52,200 bases of DNA, from positions 301,187 through 353,386 of the forward strand of contig JAMPHR010000003.1 in assembly GCA_023663345.1 (NCBI GenBank). Reading direction: 5' to 3'. This DNA is from Paenibacillus sp. Its GTDB lineage: Bacteria > Bacteroidota > Bacteroidia > Bacteroidales > Muribaculaceae. A model generated the notes under the pieces. The model was not told where the DNA came from. It saw only the letters and a program-made list of their open reading frames with translations, and made no database searches. How positions within the stretch are numbered: position 1 is the first letter of the stretch; each line of letters opens with the position of its first letter. Made by a program: the position numbers and the translations under genes. Below are positions 35,793 through 45,689 of the stretch, piece after piece.

Positions 35793-36305
35793 CTATTCAA
35801 ATTCCATCATGTCAAAAAACATCAGCCGGGTATGATCATTGACATCTTTTTCTGACAACAGCTTGAAATAATTATTTTGATAAAACCCTATAGCCGACAT
35901 ATAAGCATCCACAGTAAGAAACCTAAATGCAGAATAATTGGGATTCTCATTAAGCATTCCCTTCAAAAGATTCATTAGGTCAGTACCCAGGTTCTGCCCC
36001 CTGTAAGCAGCAGACACTGCAAAGCGTCCTATTTTGATTGCGGGATAACTACTGAAGTGCTTACCGTATGGGAAACCTTTCTTAATTTTTCTCCATTGAC
36101 TATTGGTGACCTCCTGCTGGCTAATCTTATCATTCAGAATACAAAAATAAGTTGCAATATTCCCGTCATCCTCAAGTACAAATGTGTTGGCTATGCGTTT
36201 TTCTGAAAAATTCAACGCATCTTCCACAAGAAATCCGTTAAGGTCGAGATCTCCACAATCGAAATTCGACACATCCAAGGCTGGAGAGAGTCTTACAAGC
36301 CTCAT
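35793..36305 (-). CDS. GNAT acetyltransferase, toxin-like
   Basis: This is a single-domain GNAT of 170 residues resembling TacT/AtaT-type toxins that acetylate aminoacyl-tRNA. The N-terminus has NFDCGDLDLNGFLVEDALNF, which matches the FxCGxxxLDxFL pattern of that group. The acetyl-CoA loop reads AAYRGQNLG, and the end holds VDAYMSAIGFYQNNYFK with the conserved Tyr. The start codon directly abuts the stop codon of a 56-residue upstream gene, the normal antitoxin-toxin order. It is more AT-rich than flanking genes. Toxicity is inferred. Confidence 0.8.
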   Translation of the reverse strand: MRLVRLSPALDVSNFDCGDLDLNGFLVEDALNFSEKRIANTFVLEDDGNIATYFCILNDKISQQEVTNSQWRKIKKGFPYGKHFSSYPAIKIGRFAVSAAYRGQNLGTDLMNLLKGMLNENPNYSAFRFLTVDAYMSAIGFYQNNYFKLLSEKDVNDHTRLMFFDMMEFE

Positions 36306-36476
36306 TTATATGCAGATTGTAATTCTTTCCTTAGCCTTAGCCACGGCCTCTTTCAATCTTCTTGTATTTTCAGCGCGTTGCTCTCCTGAGAGGCTCTCGA
36401 CCTCCATTTTGAGTCGCTCAAAGCGGATAGCGTCAGCACCGGTCAATATAGGGGTTTCAGCGATCGGTCTTGCCAT
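36306..36476 (-). CDS. Small protein, probable antitoxin of the GNAT toxin
   Basis: This 56-residue protein has sequence MARPIAETPILTGADA at the start and ends KAKERITICI. It is helical and charged, and its TAA is followed with no gap by the ATG of the GNAT gene, so the two are translationally coupled. A purine-rich ribosome site AAGGAG lies 9 nt before its ATG, unusual in this window. Small proteins starting MARPIxETPxLxGxDA precede GNAT toxins in many Bacteroidetes. The antitoxin role and any DNA binding are inferred. Confidence 0.75.
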   Translation of the reverse strand: MARPIAETPILTGADAIRFERLKMEVESLSGEQRAENTRRLKEAVAKAKERITICI

Positions 36477-38586: not shown

Positions 38587-39141
38587 TCATATACGCACCT
38601 TGCGGAATTTGATCCTGCGACGCTTGCGACGGTCCTTGCTTCCCGCCGGACGTTCGGAGTGATGAACGGGTTCTTTTGCATCCGTCTTCGGGGCAGATAA
38701 TTCCACCGATGAAATCTCCTTTTCAACAACCACAGGAGTGTAAGATCTTGTTTCCTGTGTTGCCACGGCATTTTGCTCTGCTGTTGTGACCTCAACTGCC
38801 ACCGGTGATTCCTCGCTGGTCGACACGGGTTGTAGATTCTGAGTCAGACGTTGAGCCTCCTCCCGAGTGTTCTTGCGGATGCGCGCACGCTCCCTGGCAC
38901 GGCGCGAGCGCTCAATGGCCACATCGATCTCCTGACGGAGAAACGCAAAGGCCGTGCGCATGGACGCATCGGCGATCGACACAGCATCAAGTCCTCCTGA
39001 AAGGTAGGCATCGAGTGCGGAAATCATTACGTCGGCCGACTCGGCATCGGGAAGAAAAACCTTGAGGATACGGTCGACAAAACGCTTATAAGCATTGCGG
39101 GAGATGGAGAGTCCAGAGGGATAGATGGCTGTCTTTTTCAT
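38587..39141 (-). CDS. DUF6291-like protein with a long basic tail
   Basis: This is a 184-residue cytosolic protein. Residues 1-75 resemble the DUF6291 fold seen in phage and plasmid replication regions (AYLSGGLDAVSIADASMRTAFAFLRQEIDV-like pattern, shown here only in part). A charged helix (residues 75-100), a low-complexity linker and a very basic C-terminus (DRRKRRRIKFRKVRI) follow, suggesting nucleic acid binding. Its promoter lies inside the left copy of the 58-bp repeat. It precedes the two glycosyltransferase genes on the same strand, 75 nt apart. The function is unknown. Confidence 0.6.
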   Translation of the reverse strand: MKKTAIYPSGLSISRNAYKRFVDRILKVFLPDAESADVMISALDAYLSGGLDAVSIADASMRTAFAFLRQEIDVAIERSRRARERARIRKNTREEAQRLTQNLQPVSTSEESPVAVEVTTAEQNAVATQETRSYTPVVVEKEISSVELSAPKTDAKEPVHHSERPAGSKDRRKRRRIKFRKVRI

Positions 39142-39165
39142 GGCATTTCAGTTTTATAAGTGATC

Positions 39166-39230
39166 ATATCTGTACCACAAAATTACTCATCGCCACACCC
39201 CAAAAAGGTGCGATAATGTCGCGTAGTCAA
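39166..39230. repeat. Left copy of the long direct repeat flanking the AT-rich cassette
   Basis: Positions 39173-39230 are identical (58 of 58) to 41387-41444. Including the seven bases before, the match is 64 of 65. The repeat contains a minus-strand -7 element and the string GGTGCGATAATGT (39207-39219), which resembles the XerC arm of E. coli dif with one base missing. It marks the left boundary of the 2.2-kb cassette. Confidence 0.9.
39178..39185 (-). promoter_or_regulatory. -7 element of the DUF6291-like gene promoter, inside the repeat
   Basis: Read on the minus strand this is TAATTTTG. It gives a leader of about 30 nt to the ATG at 39141. The same element is present in the right repeat copy at 41392-41399, where it would read leftward into the cassette. 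Confidence 0.5.
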
Positions 39231-39317
39231 CATTTATACTCAATCTTAAAAATTACAATAAAAATACACAATTTAATTACAAATTAAAATTAATACAAAT
39301 TTTATAGTTTTATTTTA

Positions 39318-39348
39318 TTGCATATATGTATTTTTTAATATATATTTG
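39318..39348 (+). promoter_or_regulatory. Promoter of the bacteriocin-like cassette
   Basis: TTG at 39318-39320, 20 nt, then TATATTTG at 39341-39348 form a good Bacteroidetes promoter. The predicted leader to the ATG at 39410 is about 55 nt. Confidence 0.65.
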
Positions 39349-39409
39349 CGTAAAAGTTTAAATATAGATGAAATCCACCATTCATAAACCTCTATAAAGA
39401 ATATTAATT

Positions 39410-39739
39410 ATGAATTTAAAATCACGAGAATGCCCTCATTGCCATCGTCTAGTATCAATCAATGTATGTTCAAAATATTTCATACATGGTACAGCATACA
39501 CGGTACAATGTAACCACTGTAATACGAAATTGGCCCTTATCAAAGAACCAATTCCATTTAAATGGTGTCCTATTGCAGGATTTCTATGCGTCGTAATTCC
39601 TGCCGAATATTTTTTATATGTTCTGAAAATAGGATTCACAAAATCAATGGCATATGCTACTTTATGTGGCATATTCGGCCTTATCATATGTATGGCGCTT
39701 ACATTAAAAGGAATACGATTTAATATCCCCAAATCTTAA
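39410..39739 (+). CDS. Zinc-ribbon membrane protein (CxxC-22-CxxC), first cassette gene
   Basis: This 109-residue protein has an N-terminal zinc ribbon with Cys8/Cys11 and Cys34/Cys37, and two membrane helices at about residues 54-72 and 78-98. The layout resembles the small cxxc_20_cxxc proteins (TIGR04104 type), which I recall from peptide-related loci in Firmicutes. It could serve in regulation, immunity or peptide handling. Nothing decides between these. It is 17 nt upstream of the glycine-rich peptide gene and shares its promoter. Codon use is strongly AT-rich compared with the chromosome around it. Confidence 0.75.
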   Translation: MNLKSRECPHCHRLVSINVCSKYFIHGTAYTVQCNHCNTKLALIKEPIPFKWCPIAGFLCVVIPAEYFLYVLKIGFTKSMAYATLCGIFGLIICMALTLKGIRFNIPKS

Positions 39740-39756
39740 ATTTAAATTCATAACCA

Positions 39757-40026
39757 ATGGTAAAGAACCTAAAAAAGTTTTTTGCATTTGCCATCGTATG
39801 TGCTATTTCTAGCACTACAGCATTTGCACTAAAAGAAAAACAGACTAATAATGCCAAAGTATTCGTTGGCATTGGTTATTTAGTAGCAAAAAATGGAGCA
39901 TCTCCAGAAGCAGGAGCTATATTGGGCGTAGCTGGAGTTATTCAAGGAGGTATTGACGGAGCCGTTTATGGCGCAGTCTTTGGTGGCCCTGTCGGATTTA
40001 CGGTTGGCCTTGGAGTTGGTCTTTAA
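39757..40026 (+). CDS. Secreted glycine-zipper peptide, putative bacteriocin precursor
   Basis: This 89-residue precursor has a clear Sec signal peptide: basic KNLKK, a hydrophobic core and AFA before Leu25. The predicted mature part is 65 residues with 16 Gly, no Cys, no aromatic cluster and almost no charge after residue 35. It carries a GxxxGxxxG zipper in GAVYGAVFGG and ends GLGVGL. Such glycine zippers let helices pack in membranes, as in class II bacteriocins and ColV-type microcins. There is no double-glycine leader. The partner SpoIIM/DUF95 gene downstream supports a bacteriocin, possibly circularised, but this is inference. Confidence 0.75.
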   Translation: MVKNLKKFFAFAIVCAISSTTAFALKEKQTNNAKVFVGIGYLVAKNGASPEAGAILGVAGVIQGGIDGAVYGAVFGGPVGFTVGLGVGL

Positions 40027-40081
40027 TCAAATCTGAGGATTACTATACGCCATAAATAATCCGATAAAGCATTCTTACAAC

Positions 40082-40097
40082 TATCTATATATAGATA
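40082..40097. repeat. Perfect 16-bp palindrome
   Basis: TATCTATA followed by TATAGATA lies 56 nt after the peptide gene, just before the larger hairpin. It may be an operator or part of the same RNA structure. Confidence 0.4.
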
Positions 40098-40104
40098 TTA
40101 AAGT

Positions 40105-40170
40105 ATTACGATAGTTCAATAAAATTTGCAACATGTTGAATTATACAAATTTTCATTGTTCTATCGTAAT
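40105..40170 (+). other. Imperfect hairpin between the peptide gene and the SpoIIM gene
   Basis: ATTACGATAG (40105-40114) pairs with CTATCGTAAT (40161-40170), and inner segments continue the stem with mismatches. A ten-base palindrome CAACATGTTG sits at 40129-40138. It could partly terminate or process the transcript so that the peptide is made in excess over the membrane proteins, a common design in bacteriocin operons. Confidence 0.5.
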
Positions 40171-40223
40171 TTATTAAATATCCTTTATTTACACAGATGT
40201 AGTTATTTGAATTTTAAGATCTC

Positions 40224-40763
40224 GTGAAAATACAATTAAAACATAACTACTATAATTATTTTGTGATACTTTGCCTAATATACATCATTGCATTATTAAT
40301 AGGGTTGAGCTTTGGAATAGAAGAATTTAATACAATTGGCACAATTAATAATTTTGACATCGATATTCCAGAATTAGAGATTTCAAATTCTCATGATGCT
40401 TTTTTTAGTATATTAAAACACAACTTTATTGTATCGATTAAGTCTTTACTATTAGGGCTACTCAGCTTTGGTGTCCTTCCATTGGTTCTATCTTTTTATA
40501 ATGGCTTCATCTTCGGTAATATTATCGGTAGTAGTTCTCATATTTTAACCTCTGAGGACATATTATGGGCAACATTACCTCATTCATTTGAATTTATTGG
40601 GATGAATCTATTTGGAGTTGTTGGATTTTATTTTTGTTCTGAATATGTTGAAAATAATAGGTTCCCTAAAATAAAAAAAATACTATCAATGATCTTTGTT
40701 GCAACCATTATCATTGTATTAGCCGCATTATTCGAAAGTTATATATCTATTAGATTTAATTAA
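40224..40763 (+). CDS. SpoIIM/DUF95 family membrane protein of the cassette
   Basis: This polytopic membrane protein of 179 residues fits the SpoIIM (PF01944, formerly DUF95) family. It has FYNGFIFGNIIG near residues 91-102, matching the family FNGFxxG motif, and LPHSFEFIGMNLFG near residue 117, matching the HGxxE motif. DUF95 proteins occur in nearly every circular bacteriocin cluster, where they take part in maturation, export or self-protection. The start is a GTG at 40224, since no in-frame ATG precedes the first helix. The next gene starts 1 nt after its stop. Confidence 0.75.
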   Translation: MKIQLKHNYYNYFVILCLIYIIALLIGLSFGIEEFNTIGTINNFDIDIPELEISNSHDAFFSILKHNFIVSIKSLLLGLLSFGVLPLVLSFYNGFIFGNIIGSSSHILTSEDILWATLPHSFEFIGMNLFGVVGFYFCSEYVENNRFPKIKKILSMIFVATIIIVLAALFESYISIRFN

Positions 40764-40764
40764 A

Positions 40765-41322
40765 ATGAAAGCATATATTTCATTAGTAATTATCATACTA
40801 TCATCTTTAAGCGCATACTTTATAACAGAATATGCCAACAATTTGCAACTATGTACATATGGAATAAACAATATTCCCAATAGTTATAAGATATTATTTG
40901 GTATTTCTAAAATCACTAGCGCTCTTGTTCCTATTGTCATAATCAGTTTTATCATTATTACCACGACAATAATACTTAATGATATATTTGACTATCGACT
41001 TTCCTTAAAATTCATATTTCAAGTTGTTGGTTTTTCTTACATCCCAATGCTATTGTACTATTACTTTTTCTGGATTAATTTAATTCAGTATTGTAATACA
41101 AGTAATATTAGAAATACTGATGAATTTGTAAATATGAAATTTATATTCAACCTGCAATTAAGCGATTTTTCTTTAATTAATTTAGCCTGTTGGGGATATT
41201 TATTTATATTTATCATATATAATCTTATAAAACATAAGATTAATATTTCGCATACAATCATAGCGACATTATTACCTTCTGCAATTATGCTATCTGTATA
41301 TTATACAATATCATTTGCTTAA
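40765..41322 (+). CDS. Polytopic membrane protein of the cassette (possibly YIP1-like)
   Basis: This 185-residue protein has about five hydrophobic helices and little else. The central segment FIFQVVGFSYIPMLLYYYFFW is reminiscent of YIP1-type membrane proteins, but I do not assign the family firmly. It begins 1 nt after the SpoIIM gene and must be cotranslated with it. In circular bacteriocin clusters a small hydrophobic protein next to the DUF95 gene often gives immunity, so that role is a reasonable guess here. Confidence 0.65.
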   Translation: MKAYISLVIIILSSLSAYFITEYANNLQLCTYGINNIPNSYKILFGISKITSALVPIVIISFIIITTTIILNDIFDYRLSLKFIFQVVGFSYIPMLLYYYFFWINLIQYCNTSNIRNTDEFVNMKFIFNLQLSDFSLINLACWGYLFIFIIYNLIKHKINISHTIIATLLPSAIMLSVYYTISFA

Positions 41323-41379
41323 ATCTATATAAAAATGAGTTTTAATGCATCAATGTATTTTTGCAATGATTAAATCATA

Positions 41380-41444
41380 ATATCTATACCACAAAATTAC
41401 TCATCGCCACACCCCAAAAAGGTGCGATAATGTCGCGTAGTCAA
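41380..41444. repeat. Right copy of the long direct repeat flanking the AT-rich cassette
   Basis: Positions 41387-41444 repeat 39173-39230 exactly, and 64 of 65 bases match when the preceding seven are included. GGTGCGATAATGT lies at 41421-41433. The base composition changes from AT-rich to GC-rich shortly after this copy, so it is the right end of the cassette. Confidence 0.9.
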
Positions 41445-43175: not shown

Positions 43176-43406
43176 TCATGATACGGGTGGATGCTTTTCC
43201 TTATATTCCTCCCATACCAATGTCGCGAGATATTTGTCACTCCTGCATTGCAGATCAGCAACACCGTCCTCAATCAACGACGCTGTTTCGGACTTATAAT
43301 AAATGTCAGTGGCTTTTTTTAACGGGATTCCGAACAATTCGCACATGCTTAGTATTATACCTGCGCATTTGCTACCACGGAACACGAGCCGGCTCTCCTC
43401 TGTCAT
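43176..43406 (-). CDS. Small DUF3791-like protein, third gene of the DUF3990 operon
   Basis: This 76-residue protein has the pattern ELFGIPLKKATDIYYKSETASLIED. The same pattern is in the protein at 51513-51740 (GMELTEAISTFHNSETFSKLED), also paired with DUF3990. I take it as a DUF3791-like antitoxin candidate. The ATG at 43406 overlaps the DUF3990 stop by four bases (ATGA), which marks it as the start although the frame is open further upstream. The function is inferred from the repeated pairing. Confidence 0.7.
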   Translation of the reverse strand: MTEESRLVFRGSKCAGIILSMCELFGIPLKKATDIYYKSETASLIEDGVADLQCRSDKYLATLVWEEYKEKHPPVS

Positions 43407-43879
43407 AATCTTAAGCTTTCTATATGGACAAGACACCTGTCCAACATTTCCTGAGAACGGATACAATACTGGATATTAGGCTTCTCGTACTTTAACAACC
43501 CCAATGTTTCATTCTCGGAAAGTTCTCCGGCAAAATAGCGGTCAAGCGTCATGATCACCTTATCATCAGCAATGCCACCTATAATCAGGTCATATCCGGT
43601 ATCATCCTTTCCGGCACGGCATTTTGAGACGAAATCAAGCCATGCTTTGTCATAGGAATCAAACTTAAGGACTGACCATTCCGATAGATTTATGTCATCG
43701 AACTCATAAGTATTCAGCCAAGCGGGCTTATTTCTGCGCAGAAACCTCTGACCATATCTCACTGCCTGCTCATGAATGGAGGTGAGATAGAATCCTTTGC
43801 CAAAATCAAGATACGGACGAGAATGGTCTGTATCCGGGCGCTCAACAGGCAAATCGGACGAATGGTACAGCTTCATCAT
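43403..43879 (-). CDS. DUF3990 protein, predicted ADP-ribosyltransferase-fold toxin
   Basis: This 158-residue protein of the DUF3990 family is related to ADP-ribosyltransferase folds. The N-terminus KLYHSSD gives the first-strand His, and DFGKGFYLT near residues 26-34 gives the Tyr of an H-Y-type active site. The third catalytic residue is not obvious. The core phrase YDLIIGGIADDKVI is shared with the homologue at the right end of the window (YDIVIGPVADDTI). Both sides overlap small DUF3791-type genes by four bases. A toxin acting on protein or nucleic acid is likely, but unproven. Confidence 0.8.
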   Translation of the reverse strand: MMKLYHSSDLPVERPDTDHSRPYLDFGKGFYLTSIHEQAVRYGQRFLRRNKPAWLNTYEFDDINLSEWSVLKFDSYDKAWLDFVSKCRAGKDDTGYDLIIGGIADDKVIMTLDRYFAGELSENETLGLLKYEKPNIQYCIRSQEMLDRCLVHIESLRL

Positions 43880-44100
43880 TGCAATACTCCTTTCTCCCTC
43901 ATATAGCTTGTGATATCATCAATCAGGTAGCGGGAACTGAACGTATGGAGCACATCATAGGAAGGTATTATATAATCATAAAGAATACCTGACCTAACGA
44001 GCCGGTCATACACATCGCCCTGAGTCATATTAAGAACATGAGCGAGTTTGCTGATACAATAGGTCACAAACTCGAGTGTCTTTTTATCCATATACGACAT
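43876..44100 (-). CDS. DUF3791 protein, first gene of the DUF3990 operon
   Basis: This 74-residue helical protein matches DUF3791 (FVTYCISKLAHVLNM, GDVYDRLVRSGIL, then SYDVLHT). Proteins of this family sit upstream of DUF3990 in many gut bacteria and probably act as antitoxin. Its stop overlaps the DUF3990 ATG by four bases. The start is uncertain: ATG at 44100 is used here, while ATG at 44091 (MDKKTLEFV) is equally plausible. Confidence 0.75.
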   Translation of the reverse strand: MSYMDKKTLEFVTYCISKLAHVLNMTQGDVYDRLVRSGILYDYIIPSYDVLHTFSSRYLIDDITSYMREKGVLQ

Positions 44101-44111
44101 CAAATTAATAA

Positions 44112-44165: not shown

Positions 44166-45689
44166 TTATTCCCACTCTATAGTTGCCGGGGGTTTTGAGG
44201 AGATGTCGTAGCATACGCGGTTGACGCCACGCACCTTGTTGATGATATCGTTGCTCACCTTGGCCATGAAGTCGTAGGGAAGATGTGCCCAGTCGGCAGT
44301 CATTGCGTCGGTCGATGTCACGGCACGGAGAGCGATCGCACGCTCATAGGTGCGCTCATCGCCCATCACGCCTACGCTCTGGACGGGGAGCAGGATAGCT
44401 CCGGCCTGCCAAACCTTGTCGTAAAGATCCCAGTCGCGGAGGCCCTGGATGAAGATATCGTCGGCATCCTGGAGGATACGCACCTTCTCGGGAGTGATGT
44501 CGCCGAGGATACGAACGGCCAGACCGGGTCCGGGGAAGGGATGACGCTTGATAAGGTGTTCGGGCATACCGAGTTGACGGCCTACGGAACGAACCTCGTC
44601 CTTGAAAAGCAGACGCAGAGGCTCGCAGAGCTTAAGGTTCATCTTCTCGGGGAGACCACCCACATTGTGGTGGCTCTTGATGGTGGTACCGGTGATGGAA
44701 AGAGACTCGATGCAGTCGGGGTAAATGGTACCCTGGGCAAGCCATTTCACATCCTTGATCTTGTGGGCTTCCTCATCAAACACGTCGATGAATCCCTTGC
44801 CGATGATCTTGCGCTTGCGCTCGGGCTCGGTGACGCCGGCGAGCTCGCTGAAGAATTTCTCGGAAGCGTCGACCCCGATCACGTTGAGGCCGAGGCACTC
44901 GTAATCGTGGAGCACGTTGCGGAACTCGTTCTTGCGCAACATGCCGTGGTCAACGAAAATGCAGGTGAGGTTCTTGCCGATGGCTCGGTTGAGGAGCACG
45001 GCAGCTACCGAAGAGTCCACACCGCCACTGAGACCAAGCACCACCTTGTCGTCGCCCAGCTGCTCGCGGAGCGACTTCACGGTCGACTCGATGAACGACT
45101 CGGCAGTCCAGTCGCGCTTGCCACCACAGATGCCTACCACGAAATTGTTGAGGATCTGGGTGCCACACTCGGAGTGGAACACCTCGGGGTGGAACTGTAC
45201 GCCCCATGTCTGCTCGCCCTCTACCTGATAAGCCGCGATGCGCACCTTGTCGGTCGATGCGATCACACGGAAATTGTCGGGTATCGAGGTGATGGTGTCG
45301 CCGTGGCTCATCCACACCTGAGCGCCTACAGGGATATCGCGCATCAGGGGATTCTCCTTGTCGATGCTCGAGAGATGGGCACGTCCGTACTCGCGTGAAG
45401 GGGCCGGCTCTACCGATCCGCCCGATGTGTAAGCGATGAACTGGGCACCGTAGCAGATGCCGAGCACAGGGAGGTGTCCGCGCAGACGCGACAGTTCGGT
45501 ACGGAACGCCTTCTCGTCATAGACCGAGAAGGGCGATCCCGACAGGATGACACCTATCACCGAGGGGTCGTCGTAGGGGAACTTGTTGTAGGGAACGATC
45601 TCGCAATACTCGCCAAGCTCGCGGATGCGCCGCCCTATGAGCTGGGTAGTCTGTGAGCCGAAGTCGAGGATAATGATTTTTTCCTGCAT
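44166..45689 (-). CDS. guaA: GMP synthase (glutamine-hydrolysing)
   Basis: GuaA converts XMP to GMP with glutamine and ATP in purine synthesis. The 507-residue protein is of normal length. The class I glutamine amidotransferase domain carries the Cys nucleophile in GICYGAQF (about residue 78) and His in [10 protein letters not shown]. The ATP pyrophosphatase domain has the P-loop [11 protein letters not shown] near residue 221. The C-terminal dimerisation domain ends KPPATIEWE, the family terminus. It is divergent from kdsC. Confidence 0.97.

What the first reader, a model, noticed from the sequence alone, without database searches (positions are those of the whole stretch)
39166..41444. AT-rich bacteriocin-like cassette bounded by direct repeats
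Between two identical 58-bp repeats the DNA becomes visibly AT-rich. It encodes, in one direction, a CxxC zinc-ribbon membrane protein, a Sec-exported glycine-zipper peptide, a SpoIIM/DUF95 membrane protein and another polytopic membrane protein. From established knowledge, DUF95 proteins accompany circular bacteriocin precursors in Gram-positive bacteria. A peptide plus DUF95 plus a hydrophobic protein is their minimal logic. I know of no described circular or DUF95-linked bacteriocin in Bacteroidales, so this may be a new class of antagonistic or signalling peptide system.
Basis: partly seen in the sequence, partly recalled or inferred. Interest (0 to 1): 0.88.

Follow-up and report, generated by a model that had tools for sequence, protein, structure and literature searches.

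The report
SpoIIM-linked bacteriocin-like peptide cassette
A small AT-rich gene cassette in a gut-type Gram-negative bacterium pairs a tiny, probably exported glycine-rich peptide with the kind of membrane proteins that Gram-positive bacteria use to release ring-shaped antimicrobial peptides, and similar gene sets turn up in distant relatives, so it may be an overlooked family of bacterial warfare or signalling peptides.

Summary
Between two identical 58-bp repeats lies a 2.1-kb island at 28% G+C (surroundings 53%) with four same-strand ORFs; the 40224-40763 product matches SpoIIM/DUF95 (PF01944, 57 bits). Short stand-alone SpoIIM genes turned up in seven other genomes of the same phylum. Seven of these eight loci have a small peptide gene with a hydrophobic, signal-like start near SpoIIM, and all eight have a polytopic neighbour, in three a sub-threshold Yip1 match. 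Under criteria set after the first peptides were seen, the peptide appears in 6 of 8 short-SpoIIM loci and 0 of 30 long-SpoIIM loci. Some loci add an M48 protease, a regulator or exporter genes. Published Firmicutes circular-bacteriocin clusters combine precursor, SpoIIM and ATPase, often Yip1, rarely M48. Best reading: a bacteriocin-like peptide production/export cassette, a new variant of the SpoIIM-linked kind. Circularisation and killing are untested; the peptide matches no bacteriocin model and no ATPase gene lies in the cassette, so it is not filed as a circular bacteriocin. The repeats are not specific cassette ends: each is a copy of the neighbouring gene's promoter, one of 41 such sites in this genome.

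The parts
39157..39230 (.). left direct repeat (58-nt identical core 39173-39230); contains, on the - strand, the promoter-like motif CGACATTATCGCACC-N21-TAATTTTG of the gene 38587-39141
41371..41444 (.). right direct repeat (identical core 41387-41444); a copy of the same - strand motif with no ORF of the 184-aa family behind it
39318..39348 (+). putative cassette promoter TTG-N20-TATATTTG (Bacteroidota-type consensus, recalled)
39410..39739 (+). 109-aa protein with two CxxC pairs and two predicted TM segments; a protein of like architecture in G1000 shows no sequence similarity beyond shuffles
39757..40026 (+). 89-aa peptide precursor: signal-like leader (39757-39828, ends AFA; cleavage site by eye), glycine-zipper core of 65 aa (39829-40023)
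40105..40170 (+). predicted RNA stem-loop between peptide gene and membrane-protein genes (possible attenuator)
   Evidence: 204-nt stretch: z -2.2, 7 of 200 shuffles fold as well
40224..40763 (+). short SpoIIM/DUF95 membrane protein, 179 aa, GTG start
   Evidence: PF01944 57.2 bits; short|long split support 0.98
40765..41322 (+). 185-aa polytopic membrane protein (5 predicted TM), weakly similar to its counterparts in G595, G1061 and G522; 1 nt after SpoIIM
   Evidence: no Pfam match of its own at E<=1
38587..39141 (-). context only: 184-aa gene whose promoter is the left repeat; a multicopy family in this genome

Best explanation
The cassette makes and releases a bacteriocin-like membrane-active peptide. 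The 89-aa precursor carries a signal-like leader; the glycine-zipper core of about 65 aa is released and acts on the membranes of competing cells, possibly after head-to-tail closure as in Gram-positive relatives. SpoIIM and the neighbouring polytopic (Yip1-like) protein form a membrane complex that exports the peptide and/or protects the producer. In related loci an M48 metalloprotease is the likely leader peptidase; the window cassette lacks one and would rely on signal peptidase or a protease encoded elsewhere. Shown: gene content, SpoIIM identity, recurrence of the gene set, similarity of the window peptide to four of the six other peptides, dN/dS well below 1 for SpoIIM, Yip-like and M48 genes in one pair of genomes. 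Inferred: export, processing, antagonism, immunity. Not shown at all: circularity.
For: Eight short stand-alone SpoIIM loci in eight genomes of one phylum, the window included. Seven of 8 have a 73-106 aa peptide gene with a hydrophobic N-terminus on the same strand, 5' of SpoIIM within 1.5 kb; the eighth, G522, is a near relative of G1061 that lacks the stretch holding the peptide gene. Fixed criteria: 6 of 8 against 0 of 30 long-SpoIIM loci, either strand. Window peptide core against those of G378, G1061, G1133: above all 1000 shuffles; G1000 P 0.009. GxxxG pairs enriched in 4 of 7 peptides (P 0.006-0.03). All 8 have a polytopic neighbour; 3 of 8 give Yip1 hits below the cut-off, E 1.1e-4, 3.8e-4, 0.0037. 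M48: Pfam over cut-off in G522, G1133 and as a fragment in G378, HtpX models below cut-off in G1061. A regulator gene upstream in G1061, G1133, G595, and a sub-threshold fragment in G522. G920 is flanked by MacB, HlyD, ABC ATPase and OEP genes. dN/dS 0.10-0.30. Papers: Firmicutes cyclised-bacteriocin clusters have precursor + SpoIIM + transporter, commonly Yip1, two with M48 (PMC8659200, passages and section 2.5); cyc cluster with DUF95 and YIP1 (PMC8534725, passages).
Against: No ABC ATPase in the window cassette, although circular-bacteriocin clusters are described as all having one. No match of the tested peptides to any bacteriocin model. G920 and G595 peptides show no similarity to the window peptide, and the G920, G1000 and G595 peptides show no GxxxG enrichment (P 0.59, 0.75, 1.0). 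The window Yip-like protein has no Pfam match and only weak similarity to three of seven counterparts (z 3.0-4.6), two of which are close relatives of each other. A clear signal-peptidase site is seen only in the window peptide (by eye). No close relative of the cassette was found in 297 family genomes, plasmids, phages, or pattern-based scans of viral and genome contigs, so its own selection could not be measured. Single-sequence structure models are poor (mean pLDDT 53.5 and 54.8). No activity data.
Confidence: 0.57

Rival explanations
1. Membrane-remodelling or vesicle-forming complex: SpoIIM and Yip1-like proteins act on the cell's own membrane, and the small glycine-zipper protein is a structural or membrane-inserted subunit, not a secreted weapon.
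For: SpoIIM-paralog/Yip1/small-membrane-protein cassettes in archaea have been read that way (PMC5898192, section 3.3 read). Two peptides give sub-threshold hits to envelope glycine-zipper domains (PF05433 E 0.11, PF13488 E 0.07).
Against: Regulators, M48 protease or MacAB/TolC-type genes lie beside several loci; the gene set is rare and patchy (4 of 296 phylum genomes including the own), unlike housekeeping. The archaeal loci themselves include a SalXY-type ABC transporter.
Confidence: 0.22
2. Peptide pheromone: the released peptide is sensed by the producer population rather than killing competitors.
For: Response regulator or LytTR genes upstream of the peptide in G1061, G1133 and G595.
Against: No histidine kinase or receptor was noticed next to them (ORF lists read by eye, not scanned); no regulator in the window cassette; hydrophobic glycine-zipper cores suggest membrane activity.
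Confidence: 0.11
3. Chance assemblage of unrelated small membrane-protein genes in AT-rich horizontally acquired DNA.
For: AT-rich island; no close homologues; the extra genes (M48, CxxC protein, small TM protein) differ between loci and two peptides are unlike the rest.
Against: Peptide-(M48)-SpoIIM-polytopic order recurs in different flanks; 6 of 8 against 0 of 30; dN/dS 0.30 or less for three genes.
Confidence: 0.07

Closest known systems
Head-to-tail cyclised (circular) bacteriocin clusters, mostly of Firmicutes (AS-48, leucocyclicin Q, cerecyclin type)
   Same: small hydrophobic peptide precursor, SpoIIM/DUF95, polytopic/Yip1-like protein, occasional M48 protease
   Different: no ATP-binding gene in the cassette, no match to circular precursor models, signal-like leader, CxxC membrane protein; phylum not among those reported for circular precursors (Firmicutes 6925, Actinobacteria 2, Thermotogae 1; PMC8534725)
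Archaeal arCOG01996 (SpoIIM paralog)-Yip1-small membrane protein cassettes (PMC5898192)
   Same: three- to four-gene cassettes of SpoIIM-like, Yip1-family and fast-evolving small membrane proteins, some loci with SalXY ABC transporters
   Different: archaeal; read by their authors as membrane remodelling; no signal-like glycine-zipper precursor mentioned in the section read
Leaderless bacteriocin clusters with Yip1/PH proteins (PMC11580447, passages)
   Same: small membrane-active peptide with Yip1-type neighbours
   Different: no SpoIIM as class-defining protein; no leader
Class IIb/Blp-type glycine-zipper bacteriocins (recalled)
   Same: GxxxG-rich hydrophobic peptide cores
   Different: double-glycine leader and C39 peptidase-ABC exporter there (recalled); none seen here; no Pfam or NCBIfam match

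Membership tests
Circular (head-to-tail cyclised) bacteriocin system | SpoIIM/DUF95 membrane protein in the cluster | tested here: met
   PF01944 57.2 bits
Circular (head-to-tail cyclised) bacteriocin system | ATP-binding (ABC) protein in the cluster | tested here: not met
   none of the four cassette ORFs matches an ATPase family; in the other seven loci flanks were read by eye, and only G920 was scanned and shown to have one, a few kb away
Circular (head-to-tail cyclised) bacteriocin system | precursor matching known circular bacteriocin models | tested here: not met
   no bacteriocin match at E<=1 in Pfam or NCBIfam for the window peptide nor for those of G1061, G1133, G1000, G378; G920 tested in Pfam only, G595 not tested
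Circular (head-to-tail cyclised) bacteriocin system | N-to-C peptide bond in the mature product | not testable with these tools
   needs mass spectrometry
Circular (head-to-tail cyclised) bacteriocin system | accessory Yip1-family protein (common, not universal) | tested here: inconclusive
   below-cut-off Yip1 matches in 3 of 8 loci; none for the window protein, which resembles the G595 one at z 4.6
SpoIIM (PF01944) | score over the curated cut-off | tested here: met
   57.2 against 26.9 bits
TIGR04104 cxxc_20_cxxc | score over the curated cut-off of 45 bits | tested here: not met
   window protein no match at E<=1; G1000 protein 21.6 bits
Known anti-phage defence system | match to a PADLOC model | tested here: not met
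   no match for the four window proteins at E<=0.1

The most novel reading that the evidence does not exclude
A phylum-wide, so far undescribed class of Gram-negative, SpoIIM/Yip1-dependent glycine-zipper peptides, some with a dedicated M48 protease that could be the long-sought maturation/cyclisation enzyme of SpoIIM-linked bacteriocins.
Probability: 0.3. Interest if true: 0.85.

Novelty: new variant of a known kind. Interest (0 to 1): 0.63.

Why it matters
SpoIIM-linked circular bacteriocins are described almost only from Firmicutes: one survey counts 6925 precursors there against 2 in Actinobacteria and 1 in Thermotogae (PMC8534725, passages); a rumen survey assigns nine of ten to Lachnospiraceae and names a Clostridium for another (PMC13289728, section read); a RiPP survey of Bacteroidales never uses the word 'circular' (PMC10352776, passages). 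If the reading is right, Bacteroidota carry a related peptide weapon or signal. The enzyme that matures circular bacteriocins is unknown (PMC8659200); loci with peptide-M48-SpoIIM-polytopic protein in a compact operon would make it directly testable in a Gram-negative laboratory host.

Tried and rejected
Rejected: the 58-bp repeats as a unique attachment site. They hold the promoter of the leftward gene; 10 of 10 paralog loci fetched share the motif upstream, and 41 sites exist genome-wide. The exact 58-nt duplication still needs an explanation. No empty site could be shown: in the five best pyk-bearing relatives (L008-L012) none of the 1.5-kb stretches upstream of pyk holds the motif (one search had shown the wrong side of pyk for three of them). 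Rejected as relatives: the G175 hit (an export permease by eye), G936 (another membrane protein by eye, below cut-off), G914 (truncated ordinary long SpoIIM at a contig end). G034, G725, G836 and the second matches of G424 and G443 were weak or broken and not inspected. Led nowhere: searches for close relatives in viral contigs, genome contigs, plasmids and phages (one search found only matches on haloarchaeal plasmids, two of four annotated SpoIIM); the G378 SpoIIM over 114 genomes of its order gave itself and three matches in long frames; a peptide-profile search of 324 genomes of G522's family gave 4 hits, all judged unrelated (three in a 459-aa protein, one in a 285-aa frame), so it added no new locus; PDB profile searches; Rfam; PADLOC. 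Structure models were too poor for a fold search, so none was run; SpoIIM was never folded.

Errors corrected: the first control and first tree read 10 of 30 long loci on the wrong strand; both were redone (0 of 30; split support 0.98). The peptide criteria were set after seeing the first peptides; one of the six passing (G378) overlaps a longer ORF in another frame. The 30 control loci are the best-scoring ones that fetched, not a random draw. Long branches could by themselves produce part of the short|long split.

Not in print: searches of the held open-access library showed no SpoIIM-linked bacteriocin in Bacteroidota, in listings or in what I read (passages of PMC8659200, PMC13289728, PMC7132975, PMC8534725, PMC10352776, PMC11580447, PMC5898192, and one section each of PMC8659200, PMC13289728 and PMC5898192). 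Other papers were seen as listings only. Subscription papers and preprints were not searched.
Full report
What is there. The window holds a 2140-nt island (39231-41370) at 28.0% G+C; 914 other windows of that size average 53.0% with a minimum of 45%. It is bracketed by two identical 58-nt direct repeats, the only two copies in the held genome. Four ORFs run on the + strand: a 109-aa CxxC-CxxC protein with two hydrophobic segments, an 89-aa peptide, a 179-aa SpoIIM protein and a 185-aa polytopic protein starting 1 nt after the SpoIIM stop. A promoter of the TTG-N20-TAnnTTTG type lies about 60 nt before the first ORF, and a 66-nt stem-loop lies between the peptide and SpoIIM genes (the 204-nt stretch has z -2.2, 7 of 200 shuffles fold as well).

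Families. Of the four, only SpoIIM has a confident family: PF01944, 57.2 bits against a cut-off of 26.9. The peptide has no credible match in Pfam, NCBIfam, PADLOC or PHROGs. Its core has 8 GxxxG pairs against 3.6 expected (P 0.006).

Relatives. A protein search of 297 genomes of the family gave the window and two weak hits, of which one was inspected and rejected. PF01944 over 296 genomes of the phylum hit 98; the only matches in open frames of 208 aa or less were the window, G522, G595 and G378. Over 393 genomes of the order it hit 62; over the cut-off the short ones were the window, G920 and a truncated ordinary gene in G914. Of 60 genomes in G920's family 6 hit, with G920 and G1000 short. 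A search of 150 genomes of G522's genus with its own SpoIIM gave G522, G1061 and G1133. The G378 SpoIIM over 114 genomes of its order gave itself and three matches in long frames. That makes eight short loci in eight genomes. Samples overlap and queries differ, so this is not a frequency estimate.

Gene content of the eight loci (ORF lists; family checks in 45, 62, 63, 95, 125). Peptide gene with a hydrophobic N-terminus, same strand and 5' of SpoIIM: 7 of 8 (73-106 aa). Polytopic neighbour (185-267 aa): 8 of 8, with Yip1 matches below the cut-off in G920, G1000 and G595. M48 protease: G522, G1061, G1133, and a fragment in G378. Response regulator or LytTR protein upstream: G1061, G1133, G595, and a sub-threshold fragment in G522. 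CxxC membrane protein: window and G1000. MacB, HlyD, ABC ATPase and outer-membrane efflux protein around the cluster: shown in G920 only, the others being read by eye. In G522 the cluster is 91% identical in DNA to that of G1061 over 2.2 kb, but a stretch holding the end of the regulator, the DUF6625 gene and the peptide gene is missing. In that pair dN/dS is 0.10 (M48), 0.30 (SpoIIM) and 0.17 (Yip-like).

Controls. With fixed criteria (60-130 aa, signal-like start, core glycine 15% or more, hydrophobic core, within 1.5 kb) the peptide appears in 6 of 8 short loci and 0 of 30 long-SpoIIM loci on either strand. The criteria were chosen after seeing the first peptides, the window itself is among the 8, and the 30 are the best-scoring loci that fetched. 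The misses are G522 (gene absent) and G595 (12% glycine). Against 1000 composition-preserving shuffles the window core resembles those of G378, G1061 and G1133 (P 0.001, the floor) and G1000 (P 0.009), but not G920 or G595. GxxxG pairs are enriched in 4 of 7 peptides (window, G378, G1061, G1133) and not in G920, G1000 or G595. A tree of 8 short and 30 long SpoIIM domains separates the two sets with support 0.98.

Mechanism. SpoIIM is called the class-defining membrane protein of circular bacteriocins (PMC13289728); its removal from the leucocyclicin Q cluster left mature peptide inside cells (PMC7132975 passage). Firmicutes clusters commonly include a Yip1 protein and in two cases an M48 peptidase, and the leader-cleaving or cyclising enzyme is unknown (PMC8659200). 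The loci here combine these protein types with a small, mostly glycine-zipper precursor. I therefore read the cassette as a bacteriocin-like peptide production, export and self-protection unit. Export by SpoIIM with its polytopic partner, processing by signal peptidase or M48, and membrane attack are inferences. Circularity is possible but unsupported. The absence of an ATP-binding gene and of any precursor-model match fails two features used to define circular bacteriocin clusters (PMC8534725 passage; PMC13289728), so it is not filed as one.

Main rival. Archaeal cassettes of a SpoIIM paralog with Yip1 and small fast-evolving membrane proteins were interpreted as membrane remodelling (PMC5898192 section 3.3). 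The same reading could apply here; the signal-like peptide, regulators, proteases and exporter genes in several loci favour a secreted peptide.

The repeats. Each repeat is a copy of the promoter of the leftward gene 38587-39141. That gene has ten scored paralogs in this genome, and all ten fetched loci have CGACATTATCGCACC, one with a mismatch, upstream. The motif has 41 sites at up to one mismatch, none for the reversed control, and 40 of the 41 have TAnnTTTG 20 or 21 nt further on (the 41st ends at a contig end). The right-hand copy has no such gene behind it. The exact 58-nt identity points to a local duplication linked to insertion of the cassette, but not to how it happened; no empty site was found in five relatives.

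Limits. Structure models from single sequences were uninformative.

Noticed in passing
own genome, e.g. window 39207-39222 (-) and 41421-41436 (-); L067-L076, L136-L162: A strict promoter-like motif CGACATTATCGCACC-N20/21-TAnnTTTG at 41 sites in one genome (reversed control 0); 13 sites precede the 184-aa paralog family, 15 precede a MKPTSHKVTHL family, the rest precede mixed genes or none found. Looks like a lineage-specific regulon with its own activator or sigma factor.
   Followed up: partly
window 38587-39141 (-): 184-aa protein of an expanded family: 11 scored matches in this genome, found in 18 of 297 family genomes, 16 of them of the same genus (own included); no known domain.
   Followed up: partly
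window 43403-44103 (-): DUF3990-DUF3791 gene pair (157.6 and 76.6 bits) between pyk and guaA, a possible toxin-antitoxin type pair.
   Followed up: partly
L132:7963-9492 (-) and window 44166-45689 (-): In G1000 the peptide cassette sits right beside guaA, converging on it; in the window guaA is 2.7 kb away in the same orientation. Possibly a shared insertion area, possibly coincidence.
   Followed up: no
L107 (G522) against L133 (G1061): G522 lacks the stretch with the peptide gene but keeps M48, SpoIIM and Yip-like genes open; possibly an immunity-only remnant.
   Followed up: partly
L110, L113, L114 (G920): Peptide-SpoIIM-Yip1-like cluster flanked by MacB, HlyD, ABC ATPase and OEP genes, with transposase genes in between (by eye).
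   Followed up: partly
window 35793-36476 (-): GNAT acetyltransferase with a small upstream ORF, a layout like GNAT toxin-antitoxin pairs; only the GNAT domain was confirmed.
   Followed up: partly
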